Shown: one piece after another, positions 10,172 through 26,186 of the stretch
Numbering within the stretch: the stretch's first letter is position 1
How the letters are laid out: every line of letters starts with the position of its first letter
Source of the DNA: Candidatus Melainabacteria bacterium
Lineage (GTDB): Bacteria > Cyanobacteriota > Vampirovibrionia > LMEP-6097
NCBI GenBank assembly: GCA_018695135.1
Contig: JABHOV010000102.1
Location: 1-32,902 of the forward strand
Direction of reading: 5' to 3'
Length of the DNA stretch: 32,902 bases
Notes under the pieces: generated by a model
Seen by the model: only the letters and a program-made list of their open reading frames with translations
What the model was told of the DNA's origin: nothing
The model's database searches: none
Program-made: the position numbers and the translations under genes

Positions 10172-11119
10172 ATGACCAGAGATTTAAGCATCGAATTTCC
10201 CAACGCTTTTTATCACGCCTTTTCACGAGGCATTAATAGACAGCGACTTTTTTATGACGACGAGGACCATAGAGTCTTCATACACTTGTGCAGAAAGGCT
10301 GTTATCAAATACGGCATTAGGATTTATGCATTTTGCTTAATGAGCAATCATTATCATTTATATTTGTGTACGCCACACGCCAATATTGCCAAAACAATGA
10401 AATTCATCAATCAGTCTTATGCGATATTTTTTCTCGCCAAATATCCCGAAAAAGACGGGCACGTATTCAAGGGCAGGTACAAAAGAAAAATTGTAGACTC
10501 TGACCAATATTCCAAAACACTAATTAACTATATTCACAACAATCCAGTGGCAGCCAAAATCAAGGAGAAGCCAGAAGAATACCAATGGTCTAGCTATCAA
10601 TCATATATCAAAGCTGAGTTACGGTATGATTTCATAGACTACTCATGGACTTTAAATCAGTTTGGCAGCGGGGCTAAGCAAATTGATCAGTTTATCAAAT
10701 TTCACCAAAAGAATACAAACTCCAGCTGGGATCCTGAGAAAGAAGCCAGGGCACAAATCTTCTTAGCTGATGATAGCTTCATAAAATCAATCTGTGATCA
10801 GTATATAGATTTCGATCAGCTTGAAGGGAAATCGATTAAGGGAGTCAAGGAATTAAAGGCAATATGCAATCATGAATCTTTATTAGAAGTCATTAATTCA
10901 CGAGTTCAAAGCAACGATCATCGCTTTAAAATCACAGCCTACCTATTAAAAGAGTATACCGATATCACTAATAAAGAGATTGGCAAACTCATCAATAAAT
11001 CAGAGGCTGCTGTTGCAAAAAACATACAACGTTTTAAAAAACTACTAGACCGTGATCAAAGCTTCAAGGCTGAAATAAGAAATTTAATCAAAATGTCCAA
11101 TGTCAGGATACGACCCTGA
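10172..11119 (+). CDS. REP-associated tyrosine transposase (RAYT, Y1/HUH family)
   Basis: A single-strand-acting transposase related to IS200/IS605 TnpA, associated with REP palindromes. The N-terminal Y1_Tnp domain (about 1-150) has the HUH motif in MSNHYHLYL and the catalytic Tyr region NQSYAIFFLAKY, then GHVFKGRYKRKIV and YIHNNPVAAKI. Residues about 230-310 form a DnaA-like/winged helix-turn-helix tail (ITNKEIGKLINKSEAAVAKNIQRF), common in longer RAYT proteins. The gene is flanked by inverted 17-bp repeats and its last 17 bp overlap the purF 3' end on the other strand; both stops lie in or beside the right repeat. The start is set by AAGGAG. It belongs with the insertions that split the pur operon. 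Confidence 0.92.
   Translation: MTRDLSIEFPNAFYHAFSRGINRQRLFYDDEDHRVFIHLCRKAVIKYGIRIYAFCLMSNHYHLYLCTPHANIAKTMKFINQSYAIFFLAKYPEKDGHVFKGRYKRKIVDSDQYSKTLINYIHNNPVAAKIKEKPEEYQWSSYQSYIKAELRYDFIDYSWTLNQFGSGAKQIDQFIKFHQKNTNSSWDPEKEARAQIFLADDSFIKSICDQYIDFDQLEGKSIKGVKELKAICNHESLLEVINSRVQSNDHRFKITAYLLKEYTDITNKEIGKLINKSEAAVAKNIQRFKKLLDRDQSFKAEIRNLIKMSNVRIRP
11094..11110 (+). repeat. Right flanking inverted repeat / REP-like hairpin at the purF end
   Basis: tgtccaatgtcaggata, the complement of the left repeat. Here it continues into a hairpin, GTCAGG-atacgac-CCTGAC, a REP-like stem-loop. It contains the purF stop codon, so the purF C-terminus (VRVVS) and the transposase C-terminus are both encoded by repeat sequence. 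Confidence 0.65.
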
Positions 11120-16300: not shown

Positions 16301-17296
16301 CTAAATCTCACCCAATTCACCCTTGTTAACTGACTGCCTCAAAATATACTTCGCCATTCCATCCAAGCCCAAACTCACAGGTACCATATAGGACTTAGAC
16401 TTAGAAAACATCGAAGAACAAAAATCAGCTAAGGCAGCGCCACATTGCATAATACCTGAAAGAAAATACAATCTACGCCCCTCAACAAAATGACCAGGAT
16501 TAATATAATTTGTTGACTTTAATGAGCCACCAATATCCCGCATGAAGGTAGCTGTTTTCTTGCCAAATAATGGCCACAAAGCCACGCCTAGAATACTAAA
16601 AAAGCCGCCAATAATTCCAGGCAATGCATTTCCGCTCTTGAAGAAATTAGTCTTGAAATCTTTTGAAACAAGATTTTTAAAAGTGTTACTCAAAGCCTCA
16701 CCCAGGTGTTCGTTATGTTCTTTAAAGTCTTTAAACTTGGCTTTATTACCATTGGCAATTCCGAGCGAATAAGACAAGTGATAAGTCCCTGAAGAAAGTC
16801 CACGGGCAAGAAAGGTATGTTCTTGAGGCACCACTGCTGCAATAACATTGTCGAGGAAATAACCAAAAGCAGACAAGTAATTATTACGTGTAATCTGCTC
16901 TAAGGTATTAATAGTGGCATTGACGAAAAGAAATAATTTAGTACCAAAAACTCCAAAGATATCAGAAAAATGTTTAACTTTCTCAGGGACATCAAAAAGA
17001 TGAGCAACTGCTGAAGCTGCATTACCCACGAATGAAAACATACTGGAAATGTCAGGCAAAACTGTATTCAATAATGGATCTTTGATTAATTCACGAATCT
17101 TGTCTCTGTAATCTGTTTTTGTAGACGAAGGCTTTTTTGCGTTATGTAATAAAAAAGCTCCGGACTTGGAGCTTTGGCTATCTAAATCAGTGGCTTGATC
17201 TGTAGTTGATTTAGTGTTTGTAATTTTGGGCGAAGTTTCTATAGGCTCCGGCGAGGAATCAATAAATCTAACTGGTATGTCTGTTTTGAGTTGCAA
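16301..17296 (-). CDS. Hypothetical protein with hydrophobic helices, head of the purL transcript
   Basis: I do not recognise a family. The first 65 residues are polar, rich in Ser/Thr/Lys and probably disordered. The rest has several hydrophobic helices: FSFVGNAASAVAHLF, TKLFLFVNATINTL, SAFGYFLDNVIAAVV, and a strong one, GIIGGFFSILGVALWPLFG. A Cys-containing segment (SGIMQCGAALADFCSSMF) lies near the C-terminus. It may be a membrane or membrane-bound protein without a signal peptide. The start is uncertain: the frame begins at a TTG (17294-17296) and no in-frame ATG occurs for about 80 codons. A 16-nt palindrome sits over this start. The 28-bp gap to purL suggests co-transcription, but nothing in the sequence links it to purines. 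Confidence 0.65.
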   Translation of the reverse strand: MQLKTDIPVRFIDSSPEPIETSPKITNTKSTTDQATDLDSQSSKSGAFLLHNAKKPSSTKTDYRDKIRELIKDPLLNTVLPDISSMFSFVGNAASAVAHLFDVPEKVKHFSDIFGVFGTKLFLFVNATINTLEQITRNNYLSAFGYFLDNVIAAVVPQEHTFLARGLSSGTYHLSYSLGIANGNKAKFKDFKEHNEHLGEALSNTFKNLVSKDFKTNFFKSGNALPGIIGGFFSILGVALWPLFGKKTATFMRDIGGSLKSTNYINPGHFVEGRRLYFLSGIMQCGAALADFCSSMFSKSKSYMVPVSLGLDGMAKYILRQSVNKGELGEI

Positions 17297-17311: not shown

Positions 17312-17504
17312 AAACGAATCATCCCCCCTACAAGGCCAAATACTAACATTTATATTTCTTAGAAAAATTAAAATTTCGACTGAGTGAAAACACCTAACCT
17401 GGCTATAAAATCTGAATGTTTTTGCTGTTTGTTAACCGAACTTTAACTCTGCCTTGTTTCTATTAGCTTGTTGGGAAAGCAACAAAGGAAATAGGAGAAA
17501 CACA

Positions 17505-18128
17505 ATGGTTGGAAAATCAATAAATATAGCACTACAGCAAATTGTTGAGAGCAATGACAAGGTTTTTAAAGAAGACCAAAAGAAAAGCGCAGACAAGCTT
17601 GCTAGGAAATTAGAACAACTTGAGCATGAAAGAAGTGAGGCAAATCCAGCTGCGGCAATTGACTTAAGAGTACAAGCATTTAGCTTGAACAAAGTCGCTG
17701 ACTACGCTGAGAACTTAGCAACTCACCTTGAACAAAATCCAAATGAGAAGCTCGAGAAAAAAGATCTTAAAGAAATCAAAGAAGCATTAATGGAATCACT
17801 TGGTATCCCTGCTGAGTTTATTGATCAATTAAGCATCCTTGTTAAAGCAGGACCAGATGCTTTAAGAGAAGCTGCAGGTGTCTATAGAGGCAAAGCCGCA
17901 GAACTTAGAGAACAAGCTGACCTTATGACAATGGAGATAGAGCAAATTGATACGGAAATTAGTAGGCTGACAAATCTCAAAGAAGCGTTTAGTGGGACAA
18001 CAGTAGATTCCAAGCGTTCTATTAAAGACTTTGTCGCAGAAAAACTCTATAACGAATCTCTTCGCGATAGATCAGAGCTAGTCCTCAAGGAAGCTCTTCA
18101 ATCATTAGAAGGAGTTGCAGAACACTAA
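17505..18128 (+). CDS. Hypothetical helical/coiled-coil protein, first gene of a three-gene cassette
   Basis: A 207-aa protein, highly charged and almost wholly helical by composition, with no Cys, no signal peptide and no membrane segment. Heptad-like stretches occur at about 20-50 (KVFKEDQKKSADKLARKLEQ) and 135-175 (KAAELREQADLMTMEIEQID), so a coiled coil is likely. The start at 17505 is chosen because AGGAG lies 7 nt upstream; an in-frame Met at 17454 has no ribosome site. The next gene follows after 25 bp. I recognise no family. The C-terminal half has the same helical style as the two following proteins, so the three may form one complex. Confidence 0.7.
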   Translation: MVGKSINIALQQIVESNDKVFKEDQKKSADKLARKLEQLEHERSEANPAAAIDLRVQAFSLNKVADYAENLATHLEQNPNEKLEKKDLKEIKEALMESLGIPAEFIDQLSILVKAGPDALREAAGVYRGKAAELREQADLMTMEIEQIDTEISRLTNLKEAFSGTTVDSKRSIKDFVAEKLYNESLRDRSELVLKEALQSLEGVAEH

Positions 18129-18153
18129 TAAGGTCGAAGCAAAAGCTTAAGTT

Positions 18154-18432
18154 ATGGCAATCAATCCATCACAAGAATTAGCATTTTCAGAGTTCAAAAT
18201 TGAATTCTATCAGTCAAACTCGACTGGTCTTGAAAACGTTATGGATCAATGGGTTGCAGTCAATGATGAATCTGGTTTTGCACGTGCACAAATTGCACAA
18301 ATTAGAGCACAAATTAATTTAGTTCGTGCAGCAATTGGTTTCTGGAGGGGAGAAGCTAGCTTCTGGAGACAAGAAATTAATGAGAACAAACTTGCAGTTA
18401 AAGAAGGTAACAAGCTAGCTAGTACAGCTTAA
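18154..18432 (+). CDS. Small helical protein with FWRGEASFWRQEI motif
   Basis: A 92-aa protein. The central part is an imperfect repeat (ARAQIAQIRAQINLVRAAI) that leads into GFWRGEASFWRQEI, with two FWR units eight residues apart. The C-terminal half resembles the next protein (EASFWRQEINENK versus SEAFWRQQISDAK), so the two are probably paralogues. The size and W-x-G (WRG) motif recall WXG100 secretion substrates, but the motif lies at about residue 64 rather than near the middle, so this is only a possibility. No Shine-Dalgarno is evident; coupling to the gene 25 bp upstream is likely. Confidence 0.65.
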   Translation: MAINPSQELAFSEFKIEFYQSNSTGLENVMDQWVAVNDESGFARAQIAQIRAQINLVRAAIGFWRGEASFWRQEINENKLAVKEGNKLASTA

Positions 18433-18449
18433 GCATCTAAACAAACAAT

Positions 18450-18710
18450 ATGAGTATCAACGTCACAATTGAATTATCCAAAGTAGTAAGCACACAGGAC
18501 TTACTCCAACTTTCTATTGCAGATCTTGATAGAAGAATGGATTCTGCAATCCTCGCTGAATCTGATGAAGATATTTCAGCAATTAGATTTGAATTATCCA
18601 AACTTAAAGCCTCATTGGGGCAATCACGTAACTCGGAAGCTTTTTGGAGGCAACAGATTTCTGATGCTAAAGAGGCGAGAAAGGCGCAAGGCGATATAGC
18701 TAGAGGATAA
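18450..18710 (+). CDS. Small helical protein, paralogue of the preceding gene (FWRQQI motif)
   Basis: An 86-aa protein starting 17 bp after the previous stop. It has a predicted helical hairpin: an N-terminal helix (TQDLLQLSIADLDRRMDSAI), then ISAIRFELSKLKASLGQ, then SEAFWRQQISDAKEARKAQG. The FWRQQI block matches FWRQEI in the preceding gene. There is no signal peptide and no Cys. Its stop codon lies in the left arm of a long palindrome that probably ends the transcript. Function unknown. Confidence 0.65.
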   Translation: MSINVTIELSKVVSTQDLLQLSIADLDRRMDSAILAESDEDISAIRFELSKLKASLGQSRNSEAFWRQQISDAKEARKAQGDIARG

Positions 18711-18744
18711 AATCTTATTTGAAAATTTTCAAATAGGATTTTAT
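18707..18744. terminator. Long palindrome ending the small-protein cassette
   Basis: A 38-nt inverted repeat with arms ATAAAATC-t-TATTTGAAAA and its complement, one mismatch, and almost no loop. It starts at the TAA of the last cassette gene. It is AT-rich rather than GC-rich, so it may act as a terminator, an mRNA 3' stabiliser, or a cruciform; terminator is the best guess from position. Confidence 0.5.
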
Positions 18745-18748
18745 CCAG

Positions 18749-18872
18749 GCATACGCCCTTCTGGCTGCGTACGCTTCGCTGCACATGGGCTTCGCCCTGG
18801 CTCTTTAATCGATTTTATCCAGTGAAGCCTTTGCAGGCACATAGTGCCGTTTGCAGCCCAAAGGGCGTATGC
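18749..18872. repeat. 124-bp foldback repeat with internal hairpins
   Basis: The outer arms gcatacgcccttctggctgc (18749-18768) and gcagcccaaagggcgtatgc (18853-18872) are complementary except for 2-3 positions. Inside are GGGC-ttc-GCCC and GGCAC-atag-TGCC hairpins. It fills the gap between the cassette palindrome and the stop of the ABC ATPase gene. It is more GC-rich than its surroundings. It resembles a BIME/REP-type or MITE-like unit; no second copy occurs in the window. Confidence 0.55.
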
Positions 18873-18877
18873 AGATC

Positions 18878-25350: not shown

Positions 25351-25758
25351 ATGGCAAGTTCAATTCCCGAAGCATTAGTTTTTTTCAGAACTGCAACAAA
25401 AAAGTTTATTAAGAATACAACCATTGAAGATGCCTCTTTAGTTGCGAGTTCAGCGAAGAGTTTAAATAAAGCATTATCAACTACAGAGCTCCCTGATGAA
25501 CTCAAAAGCGAATTAGCCAAGCTGGATGGTGAACCTAAAGAAAAATTACAAAATGAATTTGAATTTACTGCCAATTACAGCTTCGCTGAAGCTTTCAAGA
25601 ATCGAATTAATCTCGATAGAAACAAAAGAAAGGAAGCAATTGATCTAGAGGCAGAAACCAAACTGAAACAAGCTGCAGAGCATGTTCCAGTAATTGCTGA
25701 AGCACAAGCCAAACTACGAAAAATAGCTCAAGAATTAGCAGCGCCATTAGCAGTCTAA
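25351..25758 (+). CDS. Hypothetical helical protein coupled to the MEKHLA-domain gene
   Basis: A 135-aa protein of unknown family. It is helical and charged, with an Ala/Lys/Glu-rich C-terminal half (RKEAIDLEAETKLKQAAEHV...AQAKLRKIAQELAAPLAV) that could form a coil. There is no Cys, signal peptide or membrane segment. The stop shares one base with the ATG of the next gene (TAATG), so the two products are probably made together and may act together. Confidence 0.6.
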   Translation: MASSIPEALVFFRTATKKFIKNTTIEDASLVASSAKSLNKALSTTELPDELKSELAKLDGEPKEKLQNEFEFTANYSFAEAFKNRINLDRNKRKEAIDLEAETKLKQAAEHVPVIAEAQAKLRKIAQELAAPLAV

Positions 25759-26186
25759 TGCAATTTAGTCCTGAGCTTCAATCCTACATCAAGCTAGTTC
25801 TCACTAGTTACCAAAACTATACTGGCACAACTCTAGCCAAAGACATCAACGATCTTTATAATGCAGATTTTATTTCAGCAAGTCATTCTTTTTATGACGA
25901 TAATCTTACACGTTTTGTTTTTGCCAATCTCAAGGCTCAAGAGCTTTGGCAAATGACTTGGGATGAGTTTCTGGGACTTGAATCCAAGTACTCTGCCAAT
26001 CCCAATGAAAGATCAGAAAGAGATGAATTACTCGCCAAAGTCAAGCAAGAAGGTATCATTTATAACTACAGTGGTATGAGGGTCTCCAAAACAGGTCAAG
26101 AGTTTTTGGTTAAAGACGCTACTGTCTGGAATGTTAATGATAGTGAGGGGAAATTGATTGGGCAGGCTGTTAAATTTGCCTCGTAA
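25758..26186 (+). CDS. MEKHLA-domain (PAS-like) protein
   Basis: A 142-aa protein matching the MEKHLA family, a PAS-related sensory fold found alone in bacteria and at the end of some plant homeodomain proteins. Characteristic runs are FVFANLKAQELWQMTWDEF (about 55-74), RDELLAKVKQEGIIYNYSGMR, and VKDATVWNVNDSEGKLIGQA near the C-terminus. It is a single-domain protein, so its output must come from a partner, the coupled 135-aa protein being the obvious candidate. The ligand is unknown. Confidence 0.82.
   Translation: MQFSPELQSYIKLVLTSYQNYTGTTLAKDINDLYNADFISASHSFYDDNLTRFVFANLKAQELWQMTWDEFLGLESKYSANPNERSERDELLAKVKQEGIIYNYSGMRVSKTGQEFLVKDATVWNVNDSEGKLIGQAVKFAS

What the first reader, a model, noticed from the sequence alone, without database searches (positions are those of the whole stretch)
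17505..18744. Unknown three-gene cassette of small helical proteins with paired FWR motifs
Seen: three tightly spaced genes (207, 92 and 86 aa; gaps 25 and 17 bp), all helical, no Cys, no signal peptides. The last two share FWRQ[EQ]I at the same C-terminal position. One strong ribosome site drives the first gene and a 38-nt palindrome closes the unit. A palindromic operator candidate lies in the divergent gap. I recognise no family. The composition would suit a filament, a membrane-remodelling complex, or secreted helical-hairpin proteins (WRG is a W-x-G motif, but in an unusual place).
Basis: inference. Interest (0 to 1): 0.6.

Follow-up and report, generated by a model that had tools for sequence, protein, structure and literature searches.

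The report
Helical-hairpin cassette, possible type III filament
Two of these three small genes encode members of a new helical-hairpin protein family found only in two lineages of non-photosynthetic cyanobacterial relatives, and gene linkage suggests the proteins are exported by a flagellum-like secretion machine that has no flagellar filament.

Summary
Genes A (207 aa), B (92 aa) and C (86 aa) are real, conserved and under purifying selection. B and C are paralogues of one unnamed helical-hairpin family (AlphaFold pLDDT 94). I found the family in 9/9 genomes of the window's family (f1) and 11/11 of a second family (f6). It was absent from 126 other genomes of the class and 286 others of the phylum.

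The same hairpin occurs alone (86-99 aa), with an inserted domain (130-260 aa), and repeated 2-3 times in large EF-hand, dockerin or RTX proteins. Members are almost free of cysteine. One small member sits beside a 153-aa glycine-zipper protein.

The class carries a second FlhA lineage (FlhA2), separate from flagellar FlhA. f6 has only FlhA2, with FliE, FliF, FliH, FliI and rod proteins, but no flagellin and no P-ring. f1 and f6 are sisters in the FlhA2 tree. Hairpin loci lie 12.7-14.1 kb from FlhA2 in six f6 genomes and 3.6-4.0 kb from the second FliF in four f1 genomes.

Best reading: axial (needle-like) subunits or substrates of this filament-less type III apparatus. This is inferred, not shown; no needle, WXG100 or other known family matches.

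The parts
17505..18128 (+). Gene A: 207-aa all-helical, Cys-free protein, first gene of the unit
   Evidence: homologues in 8 of 9 f1 genomes, none elsewhere in 60; AlphaFold: six helices, pLDDT 75
18154..18432 (+). Gene B: 92-aa helical hairpin (helices 5-34 and 42-91) with FWRGEASFWRQEI
18450..18710 (+). Gene C: 86-aa helical-hairpin paralogue of B with FWRQQI
17488..17504 (+). Ribosome-binding site region of A (AGGAG, then ATG)
   Evidence: conserved in G001 and G002
18705..18746 (.). 42-nt AT-rich palindrome at the 3' end of C; overlaps its last codons; not a canonical terminator
16301..17296 (-). Gene D: divergent 331-aa protein with hydrophobic stretches, no known family; seen beside the cassette in genus g1 only
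   Evidence: a distant homologue lies about 4 kb from another hairpin gene in G007

Best explanation
B and C are founding members of a new helical-hairpin family whose members are most likely substrates of a second, filament-less flagellar-type III export apparatus (FlhA2, FliI, FliH, FliF2, FliE2, plus rod proteins in f6). They probably assemble outside the inner membrane as its axial or needle-like structure. The minimal hairpins (B, C) would be the polymerising subunits. Hairpins with a domain inserted between the two helices would be decorated subunits, on the plan of flagellin. The large EF-hand, dockerin or RTX proteins with repeated hairpins would dock into the same structure as adhesins or effectors. 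A would be a helical accessory: chaperone, ruler or tip. Shown here: the gene family, its fold prediction, paralogy, taxonomic limits, Cys depletion, the two FlhA clades, absence of flagellin and P-ring in f6, and the gene linkages. Inferred: export, polymerisation, position in the machine, and the role of A.
For: (1) The family profile finds 9/9 f1 and 11/11 f6 genomes, 0/126 other class genomes, and 0/286 others in a phylum-wide draw. (2) The FHIPEP tree has two 100%-supported clades. The flagellar clade occurs only in flagellin-bearing families. FlhA2 includes the flagellin-free families f4, f5 and f6, and f1+f6 are sisters in it at 100/99. (3) f6 has FHIPEP, FliF, FliI, FliH, FliE, FlgC and FlgF/G-type rod proteins, but no flagellin and no FlgI. 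(4) Linkage: hairpin cluster 12.7-14.1 kb from FlhA2 in six f6 genomes; A-B-C cassette 3.6-4.0 kb from the second FliF in four f1 genomes. (5) Architecture: minimal, insert-bearing and multi-repeat hairpin versions, some fused to Ca-binding modules typical of exported proteins. (6) 63 family proteins of 12,387 aa hold 9 Cys, against about 106 expected at the background rate. (7) A glycine-zipper protein lies directly beside one hairpin gene at every fetched locus where it was found, in both f1 and f6. (8) f4, with unrelated sequences, carries an analogous small helical protein plus an insert-bearing protein just upstream of FliE2-FliF2-FlhA2.
Against: No sequence or fold match to needle, rod or flagellin. 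FlhA2 also exists in f3, f4, f5 and f8 without this family. The linkages are kilobases apart with housekeeping genes between, and each may be a single ancestral event. In the window itself no type III gene is near. Cys-free composition is common in coiled-coil proteins. RTX domains usually go with type I secretion.
Confidence: 0.45

Rival explanations
1. Extracellular or surface hairpin proteins that form an adhesive layer or filament but leave by another route (type I or an unknown one); the tie to FlhA2 is shared ancestry of f1 and f6 only.
For: RTX and EF-hand fusions; f1 and f6 are sisters, so co-occurrence is one phylogenetic event; other FlhA2-bearing families lack the family.
Against: Small members carry no RTX-type secretion module; two different hairpin loci are each linked to a different type III gene.
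Confidence: 0.22
2. Cytosolic chaperones or regulators of the type III apparatus (FliJ/FlgN/FliS-like helical hairpins).
For: FliJ-type proteins appear among the non-significant fold hits (CdsO for B, YscO for A); FliS in the sequence hits at E = 0.28.
Against: Known chaperones are not found as 2-3 tandem repeats in 500-1200-aa Ca-binding proteins, nor with large inserts between the helices (general knowledge of those families).
Confidence: 0.13
3. Cytosolic helical scaffold or membrane-remodelling complex (BAR/ESCRT-like), unrelated to secretion.
For: Non-significant fold hits to arfaptin BAR (B, E = 0.23) and Vipp1/ESCRT-III (A, E > 0.5).
Against: The hits are generic for long helices; fusions to dockerin and RTX modules point outside the cell.
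Confidence: 0.12
4. WXG100/ESX-type secreted pair of a type VII system.
For: About 90-aa helical-hairpin pair; weak WXG100 profile hits for A only (E 0.04-0.4); EsxA/EsxB among non-significant fold hits.
Against: No EssC ATPase in 60 genomes; no W-x-G in the turn; no WXG100 match for B or C.
Confidence: 0.03

Closest known systems
Type III needle protein SctF (PF09392: PrgI, MxiH, YscF)
   Same: About 80-90 aa, helix-turn-helix, no signal peptide
   Different: No profile match above cut-off in any genome; FW motif; tandem repeats and inserts; not in a type III operon
Flagellar axial proteins (flagellin, FliE, rod)
   Same: Terminal helices conserved with variable inserts between them in some members; occurs with FliE, FliF and FlhA genes
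   Different: No sequence match; minimal members have no insert at all
WXG100 / ESAT-6 proteins (PF06013)
   Same: Small paired helical-hairpin genes
   Different: No EssC, no W-x-G in the turn, no profile match for B or C
Non-flagellar type III system of the Myxococcales type (Abby and Rocha 2012, PMC3459982)
   Same: Flagellum-derived export apparatus that may work without a filament
   Different: The f6 apparatus keeps flagellar rod genes (FlgC, FlgF/G type) and a FliF rather than SctJ; different phylum
'Incomplete flagella' of Melainabacteria (Di Rienzi 2013, PMC3787301; Soo 2014, PMC4040986)
   Same: Filament-less flagellar gene sets were seen there and read as reduced or incomplete flagella; whether they are the same genes was not checked
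   Different: Here the filament-less sets belong to a separate FlhA2 clade that coexists with true flagella in f1, f3 and f8

Membership tests
SctF needle (PF09392) | Profile match above the curated cut-off | tested here: not met
   0 of 60 genomes over the cut-off; no hairpin locus among the weak hits
SctF needle (PF09392) | Short two-helix hairpin, exported without a signal peptide, polymerises | tested here: inconclusive
   Two-helix hairpin predicted; export and polymerisation not testable here
WXG100 / type VII | WXG100 profile match for B and C | tested here: not met
   No match
WXG100 / type VII | EssC/EccC FtsK-type ATPase in the genome | tested here: not met
   TIGR03928 (Firmicutes-type EssC) absent from 60 genomes
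Flagellum (for the f6 apparatus) | Flagellin | tested here: not met
   None in 11 f6 genomes
Flagellum (for the f6 apparatus) | P-ring FlgI | tested here: not met
   None in 11 f6 genomes
Flagellum (for the f6 apparatus) | Export gate, MS ring, rod | tested here: met
   FlhA2, FliI, FliF, FliE, FlgC, FlgF/G-type; FliP/Q/R and FlhB not searched
Non-flagellar type III system | No flagellum-specific (rod/hook) genes | tested here: not met
   FlgC and FlgEFG-type genes present beside FliE-FliF
Non-flagellar type III system | Secretin | not tested
ZorA (defence, PADLOC) | MotA/TolQ membrane domain | tested here: not met
   A matches only profile positions 426-582 of 677, E = 1.2e-6; A is hydrophilic throughout (GRAVY -0.52)

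The most novel reading that the evidence does not exclude
Non-photosynthetic relatives of cyanobacteria carry a widespread, filament-less, rod-bearing type III secretion machine (FlhA2 clade) that was taken for decayed flagella. In two families it has its own previously unknown needle family, made of FW-motif helical hairpins that can also carry inserts or be strung together in giant Ca-binding proteins.
Probability: 0.33. Interest if true: 0.78.

Novelty: new variant of a known kind. Interest (0 to 1): 0.58.

Why it matters
If the hairpins are the axial subunits, some filament-less 'incomplete flagella' of Melainabacteria are a working secretion system. That would give a living example of a flagellum-type apparatus between a flagellum and an injectisome. 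It would also give these uncultured, often host-associated bacteria a means of contact or delivery, and a set of candidate substrates. The FlhA2 tree and the hairpin profile make this directly testable.

Tried and rejected
Pfam, NCBIfam, PHROGs, PADLOC and PDB sequence searches of A, B and C: nothing above a curated cut-off. Foldseek of the B and A models against PDB: 0 matches at E <= 0.001. The profile search of PDB gave one nominal hit (C-type lectin neck, E = 1.8e-4, 28 residues), rejected as a repetitive coiled coil. T3SS needle profile: none. Type VII ATPase: none. Profile comparison of the hairpin family with the analogous f4 small proteins: no homology, probability 0.5%. A ZorA relationship for A was rejected as a helical-tail match. 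The XopAW hit of a large hairpin protein was rejected: it covers only the EF-hand region and is far below cut-off. Three Cys-rich f6 proteins with signal-like N-termini (L115, L116, L118) and one odd ORF (L028) were left out of the Cys count because their hairpin matches are weak or partial; this is a post-hoc choice. A claim that the palindrome is a terminator was dropped.

Full report
Setting. The window is contig C123 of an unnamed 2.05-Mb draft genome. I call its family f1.

The observation. Genes A, B and C are at the stated coordinates, with gaps of 25 and 17 bp and no Cys. The same A-B-C order occurs in G001, G002 and G005. In G006, G003, G007 and G008 the third gene is a 153-165-aa hairpin with an insert. 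A is found in 8 of 9 f1 genomes. Purifying selection is strong, most of all on B (dN/dS 0.03). The 42-nt palindrome is real but not terminator-like, and the operator candidate is weak.

What B and C are. They are paralogues: local score 85 against a shuffled maximum of 52. An iterated profile joins them to about 50 proteins in the fetched loci. AlphaFold predicts for B two long helices, 5-34 and 42-91, with mean pLDDT 94. The conserved core is an N-terminal helix starting near an NP motif, a short turn, and a second helix with FW followed by an NK-rich amphipathic end. No known family matches by sequence or fold.

Forms of the hairpin. (a) Minimal proteins of 86-99 aa. (b) Proteins of about 130-260 aa with a variable domain inserted between the helices, for example in L105 and L107-L111. 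(c) One to three hairpins in large proteins, several with EF-hand, dockerin or RTX modules: L051, L053, L056, L058. (d) In f6, long proteins whose C-terminus carries a weak match to the second helix (L117). One minimal hairpin is followed by a 153-159-aa glycine-zipper protein, in f1 and f6 alike. Across 63 family proteins (12,387 aa) there are 9 Cys against about 106 expected; the four excluded sequences are named under 'tried and rejected'.

Distribution. The profile finds all 9 f1 and all 11 f6 genomes and none of 126 other genomes of the class. In a phylum-wide draw of 292 genomes the only hits are six f1/f6 genomes.

The link to type III export. FHIPEP (FlhA/SctV) occurs twice in most f1, f3, f8 and f9 genomes. 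In f6 it occurs once (split over contigs in two drafts), in f5 once or with fragments, and in f4 as one full copy plus a C-terminal-only copy. It is absent from f7, and f2 has at most one sub-cut-off hit. Flagellin is present only in f1, f3, f8 and f9. A tree of 37 FlhA proteins splits them into a flagellar clade (f1, f3, f8, f9) and a second clade, FlhA2 (f1, f3, f4, f5, f6, f8), each with 100% support. Within FlhA2, f1 and f6 are sisters at 100/99. The tree program warns that long branches meet at the root, so the depth of the split is less certain than the grouping. f6 keeps FliE, FliF (matching the N-terminal half of the flagellar model), FliH, FlgC and FlgF/G-type rod proteins in one cluster and FliI beside FlhA2, but lacks flagellin and the P-ring protein FlgI. 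NCBIfam scores the FlhA2 proteins closest to FlhA but below its cut-off; the f1 flagellar FlhA also falls just below it.

Gene linkage. In six f6 genomes the hairpin cluster lies 12.7-14.1 kb from FlhA2. In four f1 genomes the A-B-C cassette lies 3.6-4.0 kb from the second FliF; in G006 a set of atp genes lies between. In the window the cassette is not near any type III gene. These are probably two ancestral linkages, not ten independent ones. In f4, a different and unrelated set of small helical proteins, again with minimal and insert-bearing versions, sits just upstream of FliE2-FliF2-FlhA2. That is an analogy, not homology.

Interpretation. The pattern fits axial proteins: minimal polymerising hairpins, versions with exposed inserts, versions strung into large Ca-binding proteins, near-absence of Cys, and co-occurrence and linkage with a filament-less export apparatus. 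I therefore propose that B and C are axial or needle-like subunits, or at least substrates, of the FlhA2 apparatus, and that A is an accessory. The fold hits of A include the type III stalk protein YscO, but not significantly. Export and polymerisation are inferences. That axial type III proteins are poor in Cys is my own knowledge, not a test made here.

Literature. Earlier papers read the filament-less gene sets of these bacteria as reduced or incomplete flagella (PMC3787301, PMC4040986). The open-access papers I could search gave no description of an injectisome-like type III system in this class. Abby and Rocha (PMC3459982) describe the Myxococcales system as an early-branching type III system lacking a secretin, the closest published idea.

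Limits. The evidence is from draft assemblies. FliP/Q/R, FlhB, secretin and hook proteins were not searched. The taxonomic match between hairpins and the f1+f6 FlhA2 branch is one phylogenetic coincidence. The needle and flagellin profiles do not match, so I do not file the proteins in those families.

Noticed in passing
window 18705-18876: Intergenic stretch with nested inverted repeats (21-nt and 25-nt arms); parts recur elsewhere in the genome (C119, C124), so it may be a dispersed palindromic element.
   Followed up: partly
window 10172-11119: Y1_Tnp (IS200-like) transposase gene, which could relate to the palindromic repeats.
   Followed up: no
window 25351-26186: Gene pair: a 135-aa protein of unknown family followed by a MEKHLA-domain protein.
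   Followed up: no
L050 8261-8740 and L064 9298-9759: 153-159-aa glycine-zipper protein adjacent to a minimal hairpin gene at every fetched f1 and f6 locus where it occurs; a candidate membrane-inserting partner.
   Followed up: partly
L145 586-1203 and L157 1322-4196: Small helical proteins and a 419-aa protein with helical ends and a large middle domain, upstream of FliE2-FliF2-FlhA2 in f4.
   Followed up: partly
L117 2796-7993: In f6 genome G028, a 214-aa helical protein followed by three long, low-complexity proteins that end in a hairpin-like second helix; resembles an f6 version of the cassette.
   Followed up: partly
G026:C3:317649-318671 and equivalents in f4: f4 genomes carry an extra FHIPEP fragment matching only the C-terminal (cytoplasmic) part, in ORFs of about 495 aa.
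   Followed up: no
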